A DNA stretch of 64,000 bases from Methylococcales bacterium. Lineage in GTDB: Bacteria > Pseudomonadota > Gammaproteobacteria > Methylococcales > Methylomonadaceae. Of the stretch, positions 3,813 through 50,859 are shown one piece after another; the first letter of the stretch is position 1, and every line of letters starts with the position of its first letter. A model generated the notes under the pieces. It worked only from the letters and a program-made list of their open reading frames with translations, did no database searches and had not been told where the DNA came from. The translations under genes and the position numbers were made by a program. The stretch is taken from NCBI GenBank assembly GCA_030949405.1, contig JAUZSN010000002.1:372001-436000 (forward strand). Direction: 5' to 3'.

Positions 3813-3844
3813 TTTGTTTATTTAATTAATATTAAGATAACATT

Positions 3845-4961
3845 AGACTTGTTCTTCTAAATAAAATATATTAAAATCAATTGCTTATATATACTTGATA
3901 ACATTCACAATCAGTTGATACAGCCTAATAAATAAACTTTAAATTAAATTATTAAAAATAATAAATAAGCTTTATAATAAATTTCTATAAAAAATAAAAA
4001 TCAAAGTATAACATGAAAATAAAAGAAATTTTACCAAGAATTTATGATGATAGACAGTTAAGAGCTTTAACAGGATTAAAAACAGAACATTTTATTTTAC
4101 TATTATCTCTATTTGAAAAGACCCTTATTGAAGATCAAAAAGAAAAACATGAAAATAAAGAAAGAAAATACGGTAGTGGTTTAGATAGCACATTAAAAAC
4201 ACCCGCAGACAAATTATTATTTATATTAAATTATATGAAGTGCTATTCTACTTTCGATCACTTAGGGTTTTCTTTTAATATGAATAAATCATGCGCCCAT
4301 ACTCATGTATACAAATTATTTCCAATTTTAATAAAGACGTTAGATATATTTAATGTTTTACCTGCAACAAGTTTTTCAACCCCTGAAGAAATGCAGCAGG
4401 CTTTTGGCGGAGTTCAAACATTGATAATAGATGCTACAGAGCGTGCTGTACAACGCCCTAGTGACTATGAAGAACAAAATGAATTTTACAGTGGTAAAAA
4501 AACAGCATACAATTAAAAATACCACTATAGCTTCTTTAGGTCATTTAATTTTATATATTGGGGTTAGTTTTCCAGGTAAAAATCATGATTATGGAATGTT
4601 TAAAAAGAATTTAATCCAGAATTAAATTGGTTTAGTAATTTTAATATATTTATTGATTTAGGTTATTTGGGGTTTAATAATGAATATAAAACTAATTCGG
4701 TAAATATTCCTCATAAAAAACCAAATAAATCTAAGCATAATCCAAACCCAACATTAACAGAAAATCAAAAAAAAGAAAACAAAGAGATGAGTCGTGAAAG
4801 AGTCATTGTTGAGCATGTAATCGGTGGAATGAAAAGATATAGATGCCTAGTTGACAAGTTTAGAAATAAAAAAGAAGGTGTAAAAGATTTATTTTCTTTT
4901 TTAGCGGCTATCCTATGGAATTTTAACATGATATATTAACTTCTTCTTAAAGAACAAGTCT
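3845..4961 (+). mobile_element. IS5-like insertion sequence, copy A (transposase degraded)
   Basis: A 1117-bp element with ends AGACTTGTTCTT and AAGAACAAGTCT, flanked on both sides by ATT, which fits a 3-bp target duplication. A second copy lies at 48563..49681 with over 99% apparent identity, flanked by AAT on both sides. The very AT-rich body differs in base use from neighbouring genes, a sign of foreign origin. Confidence 0.85.
4013..4939 (+). pseudogene. IS5-family-like (DDE_Tnp_4 type) transposase, frameshifted
   Basis: Three overlapping pieces make one ~300-residue transposase. The N-terminal 167 residues carry an HTH-like region (ADKLLFILNYMKCYSTFDHLGFSFNM) and the first catalytic Asp (LIIDATE). 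The middle piece reads KQHTIKNTTIASLGHLILYIG, and the last carries LGYLGFNNEYK and the catalytic Glu in RVIVEHVIGGMKRYR. Frame is lost at an A7 run (4496-4502; nine A would restore YSGKKKQHTIK) and at an A5 run near 4600. Copy B lost frame at the first run too, so the run may be a natural slip site or an assembly weakness. Confidence 0.8.
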
Positions 4962-5243
4962 ATTATATAACACCTGTTCTTTAAAGCTTACCTAAACTTA
5001 CTCACATAAGTTGAGTGTTGTGTTTTATCCCGTTTCTAGCTTTACTTAGTAAGCTAAGCCAGAACTTGAAAGACAATAAGCTAACCCCGTAGAACCGATG
5101 GTTTAAAAGCACGAAAGACAAGAAACATTTATATTAAAATATAGCGTTCAACCCCTTTATTTGTTATGCTTTCAACCAATTATATCGAGTTATAAATGAA
5201 AATTACAGAACCGTTTATAGCGCATTACCCTTAAGGCAATATC

Positions 5244-26623: not shown

Positions 26624-26670
26624 TGTCAAGACCCGCTTCTTGTCGGTATATAATCATACGGTTCCTGACA
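26624..26670. repeat. 47-bp solo IS481-end-like sequence
   Basis: On the minus strand it begins TGTCAGGAACCGTATGATTA and continues to GAAGCGGGTCTTGACA. Its first ~43 bases repeat, with one difference, the left end of the IS481 element at 29139..29181, in inverted orientation. Its last bases (CTTGACA) match the tip of that element's right end. It provides the stop codon of the type IIG-like gene. Confidence 0.7.
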
Positions 26671-27319
26671 TACCACTCAATTCAATAAGACTACTATGAA
26701 ACTCAGTAACCCTTTCAAAAATAGACTTTCCAGTATCGTTTATTTTTGCTGAAGGGCTAGTTATATCTAACCGAACTAATCGTGATTTAATTGCCATTCG
26801 CCCATAAAAAAAACGCCAACGTTGAGAATTTATTTGGGAGGCAAACCAAACTAAATCATTAAAACTCATTTTATACTTTGGAATCAGCACCCTTACAGCA
26901 CTTCCACCGTTCCCACGAGCCATAAATGGCCATGGCTGTACATATGCTTGCCCAAAAGCTGTAACTGTTATAGCCCCTGATGGGAATATCTCATTCTCTT
27001 CAGCCTCTACCAGCCTAATTATACTATTTGTTAAATCCCCGCTTGAAATATATGGAGTAATCCCTTCAATATAATTCTTCTCTCCACTAGACTTACCATT
27101 TAGAACATCGAAAAATTTAGAAACCGCTAAAGTTTTACCTAAAGGATAATCCGTTAAATCGCCCCACCCCCCCCCCCCGAAATCACCAAGCACAACATCA
27201 ACTAGATCAGGTATAGCAGTAACTGCACGATATATAGAAAACCTTACATTATCCTCATGTTTTTTTATAATTTTTTTTCTGTTTCTATTGGTTGAGAAAG
27301 CCACTGCTGCGGACTCCAC
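26654..27319 (-). CDS. Target-recognition (HsdS-like) part of the type IIG-like RM protein, 3'-truncated
   Basis: This frame continues the methylase gene after a shift at an A8 tract. Residues from IIKKHEDNVRFSIYRAV onward are the natural continuation; the first ~15 residues are an overlap shadow. It contains one target-recognition-domain-like unit (YPLGKTLAVSKFFDVLNGKSSGEKNYIEGITPYISSGDLTNSIIRLV, then FMARGNGGSAVRVLIPK and SQRWRFFYGRMA). The segment DFGGGGWGD is encoded by a G12 run at 27178..27167. The last residues SGMSGTV and the stop come from the IS481-end-like repeat, so the true C-terminus is missing. The domain sets which DNA sequence is recognised. Confidence 0.75.
   Translation of the reverse strand: MESAAVAFSTNRNRKKIIKKHEDNVRFSIYRAVTAIPDLVDVVLGDFGGGGWGDLTDYPLGKTLAVSKFFDVLNGKSSGEKNYIEGITPYISSGDLTNSIIRLVEAEENEIFPSGAITVTAFGQAYVQPWPFMARGNGGSAVRVLIPKYKMSFNDLVWFASQINSQRWRFFYGRMAIKSRLVRLDITSPSAKINDTGKSIFERVTEFHSSLIELSGMSGTV
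27167..27178 (-). repeat. G12 homopolymer tract in the RM gene
   Basis: Twelve consecutive C on the plus strand (G12 in the coding sense), preceded on the coding strand by GATTTC and followed by TGGGGC. Currently in frame within DFGGGGWGD. Such a tract is the classic substrate of slipped-strand phase variation. Confidence 0.8.
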
Positions 27320-28974
27320 TCATTACCTTCTAAAATTAACTTCGATATTATACTTATTGAATTGTCATTTTCTACTGCATTTCCTAGCATCACAGATTTA
27401 AAGGCTTCTTCTGTAACAGGAAGTTGAGAACCACTTATTTCAACTCTTCTTCCTTTTAATTTTTCATAACCATCATTATCTATTCTCGACATCAAAACGT
27501 TATCATCCATCCTTTGTGGGATATGTGCCTTTGCTATTAAAATTGAAGTGGGGGCAGCTGTGGGATAAAACAAATCCTCAGGTAAGCTGATCATAGCTAG
27601 TACAGTGTGATTACGCGTAAACTCTCTACGCCAACTTTTGTTATCATCATCAGCGAAAATCCCAGCTTTAACTACTACTGCAATTAACCCTTCTGGAACA
27701 AGAGCATTCATAGACGCATCAATAAAGTCACGTTCAGGTTCACCATCTTGAGAAAAAGGCGGATTTAGAAATGCTTTTTGAAAACTATCTTGAACTGCAT
27801 TTTTTGAACTCTGCTCTAAACAGCTTTTATTTTCAATATGACTTTTACCATCCCCTCTAAAAAACATATTTAACGTAGCTAATGCCCATATAGTCGGGTT
27901 TGTATCAAACCCATAAAGATCTCTTTTTACTTTTTGTATTGCTCGGGGGCCATGAGCACCTGACATCATTTTATCAAATGCAGCAACTAAAAACCCTCCT
28001 GTTCCACAAGTTATATCTATTACTTTATCCGTTGATTTTGCATCAATGAGTTCTACACAAAAACGTGTGATGTGCCTTGGCGTAAATACAATACCTAATG
28101 CATTATTATCATATCCATACCGCAGAAATGCCTCATAAAATAAACCTAAAAAATCTGTATCTGTTTGAAGTACAGATTTAATATTCAAGCTTTTTAGTAA
28201 ATGAACAACCTTCGCAATTTGCGGACTCAAACGATCATAGTCAGCACCTAGTAATTTTAAACTTTCTTCCAGTCTAGGTTTCTTTTCTTCAGATAAATCA
28301 ACTGATTCATCTATGGCTTCTTTAATTAAACTGTTAATACTCACAAGTGAAGCACCTTCAGATATATTTATTTCACCTTGATACATAGCTAAAGAAATAG
28401 CTCCAATTACCTTAGGTCGTAAAGGAGCTTCTACTCGTGCAGCTCTAAGAATTTTACTCAACTCTATTGCTGCATCTATAAACTCTGAAACACCAGGAAC
28501 ATCAACTTCAGTTGTTGCATCATTTGCAGCCAAAGCTACTTCAATTTCTCTTCTCGTGGGAATTGTTGTTATTTCGTAACCACGAGATAATAATGGCTTC
28601 CACTCACCATCCTTTAGGTATTTTACTTCTACAGCAAAACCATGATTCTCTTCACCAGCAGCCCCAACGGCAAATTTAACACTATAAGAAGAGTTTTTGT
28701 TAATAGTATTTGCATACTCAACAGCCTCATCAATAGCTTGCTGTATTTTATCGGAAGTGTTTTTAGCTTCAATTACAACTGTGGGGATCCCAGACTTTAC
28801 CAAAACAAAATCAGGTCTTTCAAGCTTAAGTCCAATATCAGGAAAATAATCTATAATTTCCTGCTCTTCAAGTATTTCTCCACCTTGACTTGGATGCCCT
28901 AATTTCCACCCTCGTTTTTGTGCTTGTGACCTTAAATAATACCTAGCACGGCTTTCTGCTCTCTTTTTACTCAT
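27265..28974 (-). CDS. Type IIG-like restriction-modification protein: nuclease-like N-terminus and N6-adenine methylase
   Basis: 569 residues. Residues ~25-140 resemble the HsdR-type PD-(D/E)xK nuclease: ILEEQEIIDYFPDIGLKLERPDFVLVKSGIPTVVIEAKN has the P-D and E-A-K pair. Residues ~285-530 are a gamma-class adenine methylase: GIVFTPRHITRFCVELI, motif I DKVIDITCGTGGFLVAAFD, motif IV AFLNPPFS, and the following ISLPEDLFYPTAAPTSILIA. The frame stops at TEKKL because of an A8 tract (27278..27271); a one-base change would join it to the downstream specificity domain for a single ~770-residue enzyme. No hsdR or hsdM genes adjoin. Confidence 0.82.
   Translation of the reverse strand: MSKKRAESRARYYLRSQAQKRGWKLGHPSQGGEILEEQEIIDYFPDIGLKLERPDFVLVKSGIPTVVIEAKNTSDKIQQAIDEAVEYANTINKNSSYSVKFAVGAAGEENHGFAVEVKYLKDGEWKPLLSRGYEITTIPTRREIEVALAANDATTEVDVPGVSEFIDAAIELSKILRAARVEAPLRPKVIGAISLAMYQGEINISEGASLVSINSLIKEAIDESVDLSEEKKPRLEESLKLLGADYDRLSPQIAKVVHLLKSLNIKSVLQTDTDFLGLFYEAFLRYGYDNNALGIVFTPRHITRFCVELIDAKSTDKVIDITCGTGGFLVAAFDKMMSGAHGPRAIQKVKRDLYGFDTNPTIWALATLNMFFRGDGKSHIENKSCLEQSSKNAVQDSFQKAFLNPPFSQDGEPERDFIDASMNALVPEGLIAVVVKAGIFADDDNKSWRREFTRNHTVLAMISLPEDLFYPTAAPTSILIAKAHIPQRMDDNVLMSRIDNDGYEKLKGRRVEISGSQLPVTEEAFKSVMLGNAVENDNSISIISKLILEGNEWSPQQWLSQPIETEKKL
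27271..27278 (-). repeat. A8 tract at the frameshift of the RM gene
   Basis: Eight A on the coding strand within CAGAAAAAAAATTATAAAAA. In the present length the methylase frame ends four codons later; the other frame runs on into the specificity domain. A further T7 run lies at 27260..27266. Confidence 0.75.
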
Positions 28975-29041: not shown

Positions 29042-29127
29042 ACCTAACGCCAAGCTCACCGGCAAAATAAAGTGTAGTGAGGAACAAGCGGAGCTTTATT
29101 TTGTCCGAGTGTAGCGCCTTGTTATGT
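29042..29127 (-). other. attC-like imperfect palindrome upstream of the RM gene
   Basis: On the minus strand it begins ACATAACAAGGCGC (R''-like) and ends GAGCTTGGCGTTAGGT, where GTTAGGT fits the R' consensus GTTRRRY. The arms pair as CGGACAAAATAAAG with CTTTATTTTGCCG around a central spacer, and the two arms contain unpaired bases as attC sites do. The RM start codon follows after 67 bp in the same orientation, as a cassette gene follows the attC of the preceding cassette. No integron integrase is in the window. Confidence 0.55.
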
Positions 29128-29138
29128 GCTTTTTGATA

Positions 29139-30222
29139 TGTCAGGAACCGTGTGATTATATACCGACAAGAAGCGGGTCTTTATTCCAAGCAAAAAGCAT
29201 AATGTCGGAAGTTCTCAACGCTATTAAAAATTAACCAAATCCTATGGCTTATCAACTACATTCTGAAGCACGCACAACACCCAAGATTCGAGCTGAAATT
29301 CAGGCCTCAACACTTGGTCTGACAAAGTTAGCTAAAAAATACAATATCACCAAAGCAACCGCTTTAAAATGGCGTGGACGCGATGAGGTTGAAGATCGTT
29401 CGCATCGTCCACACAAACTTAATACCACCTTGAACGAGGCTCAGGAAGATATTGTCGTTGAGCTGCGCCGCTTTTTACTGTTACCGATTGATGATTTGTT
29501 AGTTGTTACCCGCGAGTTTATTAACCTCGATGTTTCTCGCTCTGGATTAGGACGCTGCTTAACCCGTCATGGCGTGGGTAATATCAGGGCTTTAAGAGCC
29601 GAACAGAACCCAAGTGAAGAGAAAACAGTCTCCAAAAAAGCGTTTAAAAATTACGCGCCTGGCTTTATTCATATCGACATCAAATATTTACCCAAAATGC
29701 CTGACGAAGCCCATCATCGTTATTTATTTGTCGCCATTGATAGAGCCACACGTTGGGTTTACTTTCGTATTTATGCTGACCAAACCCAAGTCAGTAGCGT
29801 TGATTTCCTACGGCGGGTAACTGAAGCTTGCCCCGTTCACATTAATAAAATATTGACGGATAATGGTACTCAATTTACTGATCGCTTTACCAGCAAGGAA
29901 AAGCAAGCTACAGGCAATCATGCGTTTGATAAGGCTTGTACCGAACACGCAATTGAACATCGACTCATTCCGCCACGCCACCCACAAACTAACGGCATGG
30001 TGGAACGATTTAATGGACGCATCAGCGAACTAAATAAACAAACCCACTTCACCAGTGCGGCTGAACTTGAAGCTACTTTATATGCCTATTTGAAAGTTTA
30101 CAACCACCAAATTCCGCAACGTGCCTTAAACCATCAAACACCAATACAGGCATTAATGGAATGGCAAAAAACAACCCCCGATATTTTTACTAAAACCGTA
30201 CATAATCATACGGGTCTTGACA
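29139..30222 (+). mobile_element. IS481-family insertion sequence
   Basis: 1084 bp with terminal inverted repeats TGTCAGGAACCGTGTGATTA (left) and TGTCAAGACCCGTATGATTA (right, minus strand), 17 of 20 bases alike. One intact transposase fills it. No target duplication is obvious at its borders. An inverted copy of its left end lies 2.5 kb away at 26624. Confidence 0.85.
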
Positions 30223-30227
30223 AATAA
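29244..30227 (+). CDS. IS481-family transposase
   Basis: 327 residues. N-terminal HTH (LTKLAKKYNITKATALKWRGRDEVEDRSHRPHKL), then an rve-type DDE core: first Asp in GFIHIDIKYLPKM, second in INKILTDNGTQFTDRF, Glu in HPQTNGMVERFNGRISEL, and the C-terminal YNHQIPQRALNHQTPIQAL. This is the IS481/IS3-like integrase fold. The frame is intact. Its stop codon falls 5 bp beyond the right inverted repeat, so the final residues DK come from element end and flanking DNA. Confidence 0.93.
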   Translation: MAYQLHSEARTTPKIRAEIQASTLGLTKLAKKYNITKATALKWRGRDEVEDRSHRPHKLNTTLNEAQEDIVVELRRFLLLPIDDLLVVTREFINLDVSRSGLGRCLTRHGVGNIRALRAEQNPSEEKTVSKKAFKNYAPGFIHIDIKYLPKMPDEAHHRYLFVAIDRATRWVYFRIYADQTQVSSVDFLRRVTEACPVHINKILTDNGTQFTDRFTSKEKQATGNHAFDKACTEHAIEHRLIPPRHPQTNGMVERFNGRISELNKQTHFTSAAELEATLYAYLKVYNHQIPQRALNHQTPIQALMEWQKTTPDIFTKTVHNHTGLDK

Positions 30228-47802: not shown

Positions 47803-48562
47803 ACTGCACCTCCCGATAAAAACGTCTTAATTCATACTCACCTGCCACAATTTGTGCCAAACTTAAATAAGTATCTCCCATCTGCTCTGAACTAATTTCC
47901 ACTTGATACAAACCTACGGCTAAATCGTGATTAAACGGAATAAAAAACTTTCACCGGCACTTAATGATTTAGACGCATACAGTAAAATACTTTCTTCCCC
48001 TTCTATCGCCCGAATATCATAAAGCCGCTGTTTAAACGTCCATTTTTTAAACACCTTTTTATTAATCAATGTTTGAGGGTTGACGGCTTTAAGCGTCACT
48101 TTAATTTGTGAGCGTTTTTGTTCGCCCAAGGCTCGGTATAAACGCGCTGATAAAACCGCATCCTCACCCGTATGTTGATACATAAAACGTAAGCGTGGTT
48201 TTAACTTAAAAATACGGCGTTTTAAATATCGCCGCCCCGAACATTTAGGCGTATTATTTAATAACCAACGTCCATAATGAGCAGGGTTTAAATGAAGCTG
48301 ATGGTTTCCTTTCTTCAAGTTGGGTAAGGCTAATCGCGCTTGTTGTCCTGCCATTGGACTTTTTACAACCTGTTTTCCATCGACGGTCACCGAAAGATTA
48401 ACGCGCTTTTTATCAGGATTTAAAAACCATAAATCAGGCGAAAAATTTTGTAACTGATTCGGTGCTTGTAAATAAACTAGGGCGTTTTTAGTGGGCGATA
48501 ATTCACAATACACACTGCCTAAAGCCTCATCACGTAACGCTGGTTTATCGTAAAGACTTAAT
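47803..48562 (-). pseudogene. 3' part of a large envelope protein, frameshifted, cut by IS5-like copy B
   Basis: From the IS edge the frame reads LSLYDKPALRDEALGSVYCELSPTK and on through QARLALPNLKKGNHQLHLNPAHYGRWLL to SAGESFLFRLITI and a stop at 47920. In another frame, entered at a T6 run (~47944..47949), it continues PFNHDLAVGLYQVEISSEQMGDTYLSLAQIV to a stop at 47803, directly coupled to the next gene. So the native gene ended at ~47803 and carries both an IS and a frameshift. It is beta-rich, like the giant protein's ends ('KGNHQL'). Confidence 0.68.
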
Positions 48563-49681
48563 AGACTTGTTCTTCTAAATAAAATATATTAAAATCAATT
48601 GCTTATATATACTTGATAACACTCACAATCAGTTGATACAGCCTAATAAATAAACTTTAAATTAAATTATTAAAAATAATAAATAAGCTTTATAATAAAT
48701 TTCTATAAAAAATAAAAATCAAAGTATAACATGAAAATAAAAGAAATTTTACCAAGAATTTATGATGATAGACAGTTAAGAGCTTTAACAGGATTAAAAA
48801 CAGAACATTTTATTTTACTATTATCTCTATTTGAAAAGACCCTTATTGAAGATCAAAAAGAAAAACATGAAAATAAAGAAAGAAAATACGGTAGTGGTTT
48901 AGATAGCACATTAAAAACACCCGCAGACAAATTATTATTTATATTAAATTATATGAAGTGTTATTCTACTTTCGATCACTTAGGGTTTTCTTTTAATATG
49001 AATAAATCATGCGCCCATACTCATGTATACAAATTATTTCCAATTTTAATAAAGACGTTAGATATATTTAATGTTTTACCTGCAACAAGTTTTTCAACCC
49101 CTGAAGAAATGCAGCAGGCTTTTGGCGGAGTTCAAACATTGATAATAGATGCTACAGAGCTTGCTGTACAACGCCCTAGTGACTATGAAGAACAAAATTA
49201 ATTTTACAGTGGTAAAAAAAACAGCATACAATTAAAAATACCACTATAGCTTCTTTAGGTCATTTAATTTTATATATTGGGGTTAGTTTTCCAGGTAAAA
49301 ATCATGATTATGGAATGTTTAAAAAAGAATTTAATCCAGAATTAAATTGGTTTAGTAATTTTAATATATTTATTGATTTAGGTTATTTGGGGTTTAATAA
49401 TGAATATAAAACTAATTCGGTAAATATTCCTCATAAAAAACCAAATAAATCTAAGCATAATCCAAACCCAACATTAACTGAAAATCAAAAAAAAGAAAAC
49501 AAAGAGATGAGTCGTGAAAGAGTCATTGTTGAGCATGTAATCGGTGGAATGAAAAGATATAGATGCCTAGTTGACAAGTTTAGAAATAAAAAAGAAGGTG
49601 TAAAAGATTTATTTTCTTTTTTAGCGGCTATCCTATGGAATTTTAACATGATATATTAACTTCTTCTTAAAGAACAAGTCT
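48563..49681 (+). mobile_element. IS5-like insertion sequence, copy B
   Basis: 1119 bp with ends AGACTTGTTCTT and AAGAACAAGTCT, flanked by AAT on both sides (3-bp target duplication). It is inserted in the coding sequence of the large gene at 47803..51406, in the opposite direction to that gene. Almost identical to copy A at 3845..4961, so recently moved. Confidence 0.88.
48731..49659 (+). pseudogene. IS5-like transposase, interrupted
   Basis: Same protein as copy A. The first part (48731..49201) ends at an in-frame TAA where copy A has GAA (EEQN-E). The A8 run at 49214 (nine expected) also breaks the frame. The last part (49315..49659) carries KKEFNPELNWFSNFNIFIDLGYLGF and the catalytic VIVEHVIGGMKRYR. 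In this copy the KKEF run is A6 and in frame, unlike copy A. Confidence 0.8.
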
Positions 49682-50859
49682 AATAAATAATGGGCTTGAT
49701 ACGGTTTTTCAGGTAAAAATTCATTCCATAAGTAGTCATTCGCTAAAAGATCTTCTTTTTCTTCTGGTGGATGATATTGCCCGATGACCCATAATAATTG
49801 CTGCTGTTTAAAAAGCGGTTTTAGATCCATAGGCTGAATGGGAAACCAGCTCGGTTGTAATAATTGTTTGTCCAGACTCACATAGGAATCTTCTGGAATT
49901 TTATTGCGCTTAATCAAGCCTGATGGTTGAATATAAGCATTCACTAATGTATTTTTTTGCAGTGATTTAAAACGAACGGATTTAACGGCTTCAGGTAACA
50001 ACCAATAAAAACTTTCAGGGTCGCTAATGCGTTCAACATCGGTAATGGATTTTAAACGGTCATAAATTGAAGCAGGCTGGATTAGGTTAATTGAACCTCG
50101 GTTTAAAACGGTTTGTTGGGCATCTAGCCATTGATACTCTAAAACTGTTGATGCTTTCGTCAAAATCTCTGGGCTAAAAAATCGCCGTACATCAAAACGC
50201 ATCGGTGTGGCTAATCCGTTTAAATGTTCAATTTTAAAATCCATATTAACATTGGTAAAATAGCTTTTTATTCGTAAGGGTTCGGGGGTAATATCTTGCT
50301 GTATGCCATCGCCATTATCTAAAGTCACTTTGATAATAACCGCAGCCAGTGGACGAACGTCTAAGAGTCCACCTTTTAATGGATAGCTGGGAATATTATC
50401 GGCTTTCCAAATGCTCTTGTGTTGCCAGCGTTCTTCTCTGCCTCGTCCAAACCAGCGTAAATTCATCGGAATATTGTCAGGTAGGGGGGAGCCATCTAAC
50501 ATTTTAAATTCAAAACGAATTAAACCGCCTTGTTCTGGAATGGGAATCATCACAGGATGACTCGCATCCGCTTGTAACCCAGCTAATAAAACTGCGGGTT
50601 CAATTTTATCTTCGCTAATATCTTTTAGAATGTATAAAATTTTACTTTGGTATTCCTGCCCTTCAATACCGACAGGGCCTAAAGGCTGCCATTGATTTTT
50701 TAGTAAATTAATTTGTTCCGCTTCCGCTTCCGATAACATTTCAGCGGGAAAAACATTGCCTTTTGCTAAGGATTTTTGTTGTTCAGCGTTTAATCTACGC
50801 CATAAATTTCCAACTCGATGCGCAGATAATTTAACAGGGGGCGTAAGCTCGCATGACAA
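49682..50859 (-). CDS. Middle part of a large envelope protein (broken gene)
   Basis: Open from ~50859 down to the IS edge at 49682, ~390 residues belonging to the gene, after which the frame reads 17 residues of IS sequence. Not recognised. Strand-rich, with LRWFGRGREERWQHKSIWKADNIPSYPLKGG and MRFDVRRFFSPEILTKASTVLEYQWLDAQQTVLNRG. The nominal start (TTG 50859) lies within the end of the 50831..51406 frame; adding one C to the C5 run at ~50844 would join them as MRAYAPPVKLSAHRVGNLWRRL. Thus it is the continuation of the gene upstream and is followed, beyond the IS, by 47803..48562. Confidence 0.65.

What the first reader, a model, noticed from the sequence alone, without database searches (positions are those of the whole stretch)
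26654..28974. Type IIG-like restriction-modification gene with G12 and A8 tracts: likely phase-variable
The specificity domain contains a G12 run, and the methylase-specificity junction has an A8 run that now puts the domains in different frames. Long G tracts are rare by chance and typical of contingency RM genes. A one-base slip at A8 would restore a ~770-residue nuclease-methylase-specificity protein. The stated frame loss could be an off-phase rather than decay.
Basis: partly seen in the sequence, partly recalled or inferred. Interest (0 to 1): 0.65.

Follow-up and report, generated by a model that had tools for sequence, protein, structure and literature searches.

The report
Frame-broken fused restriction-modification gene
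A bacterial defence gene that should make one enzyme able to cut, mark and recognise DNA is split by a small insertion at its domain hinge; it carries a run of twelve Gs that could be unstable, but nothing here shows that it is a true on/off switch.

Summary
In detail: on the minus strand, 28974..26654, a nuclease-methylase part (569 aa) and a specificity part lie in different frames, with A8 at 27271-27278 and G12 at 27167-27178. Ten intact relatives (765-770 aa, about 60-75% identical) from varied bacteria are single open frames. In all ten the hinge is 87 nt; here it is 89, so the lesion is a net +2, not a one-base A8 slip. None of the ten carries the G12; they have two or three other residues where this copy has four glycines. 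A8 runs are common. G12 is beyond chance, but of the genome's four G tracts of 12 or more the other three lie in accC, dnaJ and an oxidoreductase gene (itself frame-broken); accC and dnaJ are one codon longer there than their relatives. So G tracts do change length in this lineage, but a G tract does not by itself mark a contingency gene. The M frame stops between A8 and G12, so G12 cannot switch the gene back on. Catalytic motifs and conserved residues are otherwise intact: the break is recent, reversible, bypassed or an assembly error. Best reading: a laterally acquired, perhaps integron-cassette-borne fused R-M gene, recently inactivated. Phase variation is possible but unshown.

The parts
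27265..28974 (-). R-M part: N-terminal PD-(D/E)xK nuclease (HSDR_N-like) and N6-adenine methylase, 569 aa, ends at a premature stop just after A8
   Evidence: PD..ExK, methylase motif I and NPPF invariant in 11 of 11 rows
26654..27319 (-). specificity (half-S, single target-recognition domain) open frame, 221 codons from a GTG
27271..27278 (-). A8 run inside the hinge; the hinge is 89 nt here, 87 nt in 10 of 10 intact relatives
27167..27178 (-). G12 run = four Gly codons in the linker before the target-recognition domain; absent from 10 of 10 intact relatives
29045..29124 (-). attC-like imperfect hairpin (TAAC...GTTA core) about 70 nt upstream of the gene
   Evidence: suggestive only, control 33 of 699
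26624..26670 (-). 47-bp scar holding both tips of the neighbouring insertion sequence; supplies the gene's last codons and stop
29139..30222 (+). insertion sequence with an rve-type transposase (ORF 29244-30227), near-identical copies elsewhere in the genome

Best explanation
This is a laterally acquired gene for a single-chain restriction-modification enzyme (nuclease, adenine methylase and one half-specificity domain; Type IIG-like). In its intact form the specificity domain would bind a DNA motif, the methylase would mark it, and the N-terminal nuclease would cut unmarked DNA (inferred from the families). In this genome the gene was recently inactivated by a small net +2 nt change in the A-rich hinge between methylase and specificity domain (length difference shown by comparison; 'recently inactivated' inferred), so translation ends at residue 569 without a target-recognition domain. 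The G12 tract is a separate, in-frame expansion in the variable linker; it fits a tendency of G runs to grow in this lineage and does not control the gene in its present state. The gene perhaps arrived as an integron cassette, and an insertion sequence later touched its end.
For: 12 relatives were found by a peptide-pattern scan; 10 are intact single frames of 765-770 codons across the hinge, L059 and L063 are truncated. Hinge 87 nt in 10 of 10, 89 here; linker 26 residues in 9 of 10 (25 in L064), 27 here. Departures from residues invariant in the other ten rows: 7 of 223 in the R-M part (relatives 1-13) and 2 of 70 in the S part (relatives 0-5), so no decay beyond the break. In 60 related genomes, 5 of them congeners, the best match is 78 bits over the methylase region only, against 1266 for the gene itself: lateral arrival. 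accC has 5 Gly in 29 of 30 fetched loci and 6 only here (G14); dnaJ is one residue longer only here among 28 loci with the motif, of 30 fetched.
Against: No reads, strains, methylome or expression data. The conserved S frame after the break is also what an off-phase or bypassed gene would show. The attC calls rest on a home-made test with a background of 33 of 699; 5 of 22 flanks of relatives reach the same score (both of L055, both of L056, upstream of L061) and no intact integron integrase was found (3 pieces below cut-off). A DUF4347 gene in this genome loses its frame at a G9 run, and a second gene with a G12 run is frame-broken elsewhere in it, which leaves room for G-run switching in this genome.
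Confidence: 0.5

Rival explanations
1. Phase-variable gene caught off: replication slippage at the A-rich hinge (and at G12) reversibly breaks and joins the frames, giving cells with and without restriction.
For: G12 is long enough to be hypermutable (general knowledge). Two homopolymers in one Type IIG gene, the first encoding PPPP, are an established switch in Helicobacter pylori JHP1272 (PMC3936762, passages). G tracts in accC and dnaJ changed length in this lineage. A DUF4347 gene here is cut inside its domain at a G9 run. No other decay in the gene.
Against: Net +2 at the hinge, not one A. G12 and the hinge A8 are absent from 10 of 10 intact relatives. The M-frame stop lies upstream of G12, so G12 cannot reverse the break. 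mutS and mutL are present in unbroken frames. A/T runs of 8 or more are ordinary: 67 sit inside open frames of 200 or more codons in 444 kb.
Confidence: 0.22
2. The break is bypassed: ribosomal -1 shifting or transcriptional slippage on A8 makes some full-length enzyme, or the specificity part is translated on its own from the GTG at 27319 as a separate half-S subunit.
For: The S frame is the -1 frame relative to M, and A8 reads as A_AAA_AAA; an AGAAGG lies 6 nt before the GTG. Transcriptional slippage can restore broken bacterial genes (PMC1088944, abstract and passages, which also cite about a tenth full-length product from a run of eight As in a human gene). EcoKI M and S, native in different frames, also work fused (PMC3510504, abstract).
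Against: No stable fold follows A8 (187 of 200 shuffles fold at least as well). PMC1088944 finds selection against A/T runs most often from nine. The AGAAGG falls in codons for residues conserved in the family, and the 10 intact relatives are not split.
Confidence: 0.13
3. The frame break is an assembly or base-calling error at an A-rich stretch; the gene is intact, and G12 is then a live in-frame tract.
For: Repeats of 500 nt or more in this assembly differ by single bases mostly at A/T runs: 131 of 177 pairwise gap openings are in A/T runs of 5-8 (pairs not independent). A transporter and an oxidoreductase elsewhere are frame-broken at T7 and A7.
Against: In 444 kb, 13 possible breaks at A/T runs of 8 or more reduce to 9 gene boundaries, 3 copies of one repeated element and this gene, against 67 runs inside open frames of 200 or more codons. 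The difference here is +2; none of the 177 gaps in the repeats is of two bases. G runs in accC, dnaJ, anmK, cysG and an iron-sulphur protein gene are in frame.
Confidence: 0.15

Closest known systems
Helicobacter pylori Type IIG JHP1272 / HP1353-HP1354 (PMC3936762, passages)
   Same: single-chain nuclease-methylase-specificity enzyme with two homopolymers in the gene, one coding for a run of one amino acid (PPPP)
   Different: there frame repair and activity or specificity switching are shown; here there is one sequence only, the lesion is +2 and relatives lack the tracts; that paper likens its enzymes to TaqII or MmeI
Type IIB enzymes BcgI / BsaXI (RM chain plus S chain)
   Same: nuclease and N6 methylase in one chain; RM.BsaXI is among 11 solved sequences matched by relative L055 (1.7e-7; the best are Type I M proteins)
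   Different: S is a separate chain there; the relatives here are RM-S fusions with one half-S
EcoKI HsdM/HsdS junction (PMC3510504, abstract)
   Same: M and S in different frames at the same domain border
   Different: there the 1-nt overlap with translational coupling is native; here ten relatives are fused, so the frame change is derived
R-M genes carried as integron cassettes (PMC9892861 and PMC12444791, passages)
   Same: attC-like hairpins on both sides of relatives L055 and L056 and upstream of this gene
   Different: no intact integrase in the genome and no second site at this locus; a lone relic at most

Membership tests
Type IIG restriction-modification enzyme | nuclease, methylase and specificity in one chain | tested here: inconclusive
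   single frames in 10 of 10 intact relatives; Pfam on four of these finds HSDR_N and N6_Mtase in 4 of 4 and Methylase_S above cut-off in 1 of 4; the window copy itself is split
Type IIG restriction-modification enzyme | intact PD-(D/E)xK and N6-methylase motifs | tested here: met
   P54 D55 ... E69 K71, G324-G327 and N404 P405 P406 F407 invariant in 11 of 11 rows; motif meaning recalled
Type IIG restriction-modification enzyme | cuts at a fixed distance from its site, no translocase | not testable with these tools
   no helicase domain in the Pfam scans; activity needs a bench test
Phase-variable (contingency) R-M gene | hypermutable repeat that sets the reading frame | tested here: inconclusive
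   G12 present, but the frame is already lost upstream of it; the hinge lesion is +2
Phase-variable (contingency) R-M gene | repeat length varies among cells or strains | not testable with these tools
   no reads; no second copy of this allele in plasmids, phages, viral contigs or 60 related genomes
Phase-variable (contingency) R-M gene | repeat kept among relatives | tested here: not met
   no G run of 6 or more at that place and no A8 at the hinge in 10 of 10 intact relatives; L057 has A7 at the hinge. Close relatives (same species) were not available, and not every contingency repeat is conserved
Integron gene cassette | attC sites on both sides | tested here: inconclusive
   hairpin score reached on both sides of L055 and L056, upstream of L061, and upstream only in the window; 33 of 699 control stretches reach it
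Programmed -1 frameshift gene | slippery run with a downstream stimulator, conserved | tested here: not met
   A8 present, but no stable downstream fold and no frame change in 10 of 10 intact relatives

The most novel reading that the evidence does not exclude
G runs in this lineage slip unusually often even in essential genes (one-codon gains in accC and dnaJ), and this R-M gene has become a two-gate device: the hinge break splits it into an R-M chain and a half-S chain made at low level by slippage or re-initiation, while G12 sets whether the S chain is complete, so that restriction is tuned and not merely on or off.
Probability: 0.08. Interest if true: 0.65.

Novelty: new member of a known kind. 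Interest (0 to 1): 0.33.

Why it matters
As it stands it is a caution: a homopolymer in a broken R-M gene is weak evidence for phase variation until the rest of the genome and the gene's relatives are checked. More unusual is that the same genome carries G14 and G12 runs in accC and dnaJ with one added codon each, which makes G-run slippage measurable in a bacterium whose mutS and mutL look intact.

Tried and rejected
Search of viral contigs for relatives: 12 pattern matches, none a relative. Near-identical DNA in phages and plasmids: none; plasmid tblastn gave 1086 records, all under 60% identity, 6 covering 80% or more of the query. Rfam on the locus and on L055-L058: no match. Two earlier attempts at an attC scan used too strict a core and missed the sites I had seen by eye (one flank found, control 5 of 364; both downstream flanks of L055 and L056 and one of L057 at 12 or more pairs, control 11 of 170); one search used a looser core chosen after seeing those sites, so it is not an independent test. 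AlphaFold model of relative L055: mean pLDDT 64.6, pTM 0.49, too weak for a fold search; it only hints that the G12 position (about residue 600) is a loop. A DUF4347 repeat-protein gene (L166) that loses its frame at a G9 run looked like a second contingency gene, but it has at least one further frame change, so it may be a pseudogene. A paper search for phase variation with methanotroph gave 6 papers, none on it by title or shown abstract start; the organism was not identified here. That E. coli AccC and DnaJ have the shorter glycine runs was recalled; the comparison used is. Notebook entry 2 counts 8 boundaries and 4 element copies; one search corrected this to 9 and 3.

Full report
What is there. 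The window is C2:372001-436000 of a 2.98-Mb genome in 5 contigs. On the minus strand, 28974..27265 encodes 569 residues with an HSDR_N-type nuclease start (1.9e-7) and an N6 adenine methylase (PF02384, 2.4e-34), and 27319..26654 encodes a single Methylase_S-type domain in another frame. A8 is at 27271-27278 and G12 at 27167-27178; the first frame stops at 27267-27265, that is, between the two runs.

Chance. G12 is not a chance run: none in 100 dinucleotide shuffles of the window. From the fall-off of G/C run lengths in 444 kb (99 runs of 6 or more, about 0.23 per added base; counts, extrapolation by hand) I estimate about 0.1 run of 12 or more per genome; 4 are present. A8 is ordinary: 20 places in the window against 58 expected, and in 444 kb 67 A/T runs of 8 or more lie inside stop-to-stop open frames of 200 or more codons (one of them is in this gene's own S part).

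Relatives. One peptide-pattern scan of the species-genome collection gave 12 relatives at 61-76% identity in very different bacteria, among them records named Cycloclasticus, Parabeggiatoa, Azoarcus, Flavobacterium and Cloacimonadota. Ten are single frames of 765-770 codons across the hinge; L059 is cut off at the hinge and L063 at residue 463. The stretch from the conserved SPQQW to the conserved PxxAD motif is 87 nt in 10 of 10 and 89 in the window. Thus the frame change is derived and is a net +2. The linker that holds G12 is 26 residues in 9 of 10 relatives, 25 in L064 and 27 here; where the window has GGGG the others have two or three other residues. L057 has an A7 at the hinge, in frame.

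Decay. Beyond the break the copy looks sound. At columns invariant in the other ten rows it departs at 7 of 223 in the R-M part (relatives 1 to 13) and 2 of 70 in the S part (relatives 0 to 5). Nuclease and methylase motifs are invariant in 11 of 11 rows. The break is therefore recent, reversible, bypassed or artefactual.

G tracts in this genome. There are 16 G runs of 9 or more. The four of 12 or more are this gene, accC (G14), dnaJ (G12) and a flavin oxidoreductase gene (G12) that is itself frame-broken at an A7. Runs of 9-10 lie in frame in anmK, cysG and an iron-sulphur protein gene; close in front of dnaG; and elsewhere in or between genes. At one G9 the frame of a DUF4347 protein is lost inside the domain. 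None of 5 congeners has a run of 11 or more. For runs of 9, start positions number 33 here and 1 to 11 in the congeners, but three other members of the family have more (35, 47 and 206), so the genome is rich in G runs without being unique. In accC the glycine loop has 5 glycines in 29 of the 30 loci fetched from 41 genomes and 6 only here; in dnaJ the own copy is one residue longer at the G tract than the other 27 with the motif (30 loci looked at). So G runs have grown by whole codons where frame matters. mutS and mutL are present in unbroken frames. This supports slippage at G12 in principle, and at the same time weakens the tract as a specific sign of a contingency gene.

Sequence quality. 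A frame break at an A/T run of 8 or more is exceptional in single-copy DNA of the sample: of 13 candidates among 143 classified runs, 8 pairs were checked by Pfam (no pair shares a family; in two pairs only one half had a match), one (L083) reads as two different genes by eye, 3 are copies of one repeated element and one is this gene. Against this, repeats in the assembly differ by single bases mostly at A/T runs (131 of 177 pairwise gap openings), and a transporter (MFS_2 model positions 1-106 and 112-359 in two frames) and the oxidoreductase are broken at T7 and A7. An error is thus unlikely but not excluded.

Surroundings. A complete insertion sequence lies at 29139-30222, with two full copies and pieces of at least one more elsewhere. 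A 47-bp scar with both its tips (26624-26670) supplies the last codons of the gene; relatives end within a few residues of that point. Upstream, 29045-29124 folds as an attC-like hairpin (z -2.3), in what I recall as the orientation of an integron array. Of 22 flanks of relatives, 5 reach the same score (both of L055, both of L056, upstream of L061), as do 33 of 699 control stretches; this is suggestive only. No intact integron integrase was found. That R-M genes occur as integron cassettes is on record (PMC9892861 and PMC12444791, passages).

How it works. Inferred from the families: the half-S domain finds the site, the methylase marks adenine, and the N-terminal nuclease cuts unmarked DNA. 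In the present allele the nuclease-methylase chain lacks its recognition domain and is most likely inactive. G12 cannot change that, because translation has already stopped. If the hinge were in frame (another cell, a bypass or an assembly error), G12 would be a live, in-frame tract that could switch the S domain off.

Known parallels. H. pylori JHP1272 has two homopolymers in a Type IIG gene and is shown to switch (PMC3936762, passages). EcoKI M and S, native in different frames, also work fused (PMC3510504, abstract). A-run slippage that restores broken genes is described in PMC1088944 (abstract and passages). The searches for closer precedents were made, in an open-licence library only. Verdict: observation confirmed; interpretation partly supported; ordinary in kind, with the G-run growth in accC and dnaJ as the more interesting lead.

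Noticed in passing
L009:2934-2947 (accC) and L011:2979-2990 (dnaJ), own genome: G14 and G12 runs in housekeeping genes, each with one codon more than relatives (accC 6 Gly against 5 in 29 of 30 loci).
   Followed up: partly
L010:1321-4180, own genome: Two neighbouring genes, a flavin oxidoreductase with a G12 run and an MFS_2 transporter, are frame-broken at an A7 and a T7 run.
   Followed up: partly
L166:579-10633, own genome: A very large gene with a DUF4347 start and repeats whose frame is lost at a G9 run and changes again further on.
   Followed up: partly
L043, L052 and L054 around base 2000, own genome: G9-G10 runs sit just before likely start codons, among them that of dnaG, where a Shine-Dalgarno site would be.
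   Followed up: no
L042:502-3287, own genome: A second R-M system: a 612-aa chain with an N6 methylase and a separate 316-aa S gene with two Methylase_S stretches, BcgI-like in layout.
   Followed up: partly
window 3844-4970 and 48556-49690; L083, L085, L087, L090, L094: A 1.13-kb multi-copy element with an HTH_Tnp_4 domain; in the window copy at 48556 its coding region is split into 161- and 147-codon frames near an A8. Copies differ by single bases.
   Followed up: partly
L059:5690-5755: The Nitrospirae-bin relative is cut off at the same methylase/specificity hinge by other sequence.
   Followed up: no
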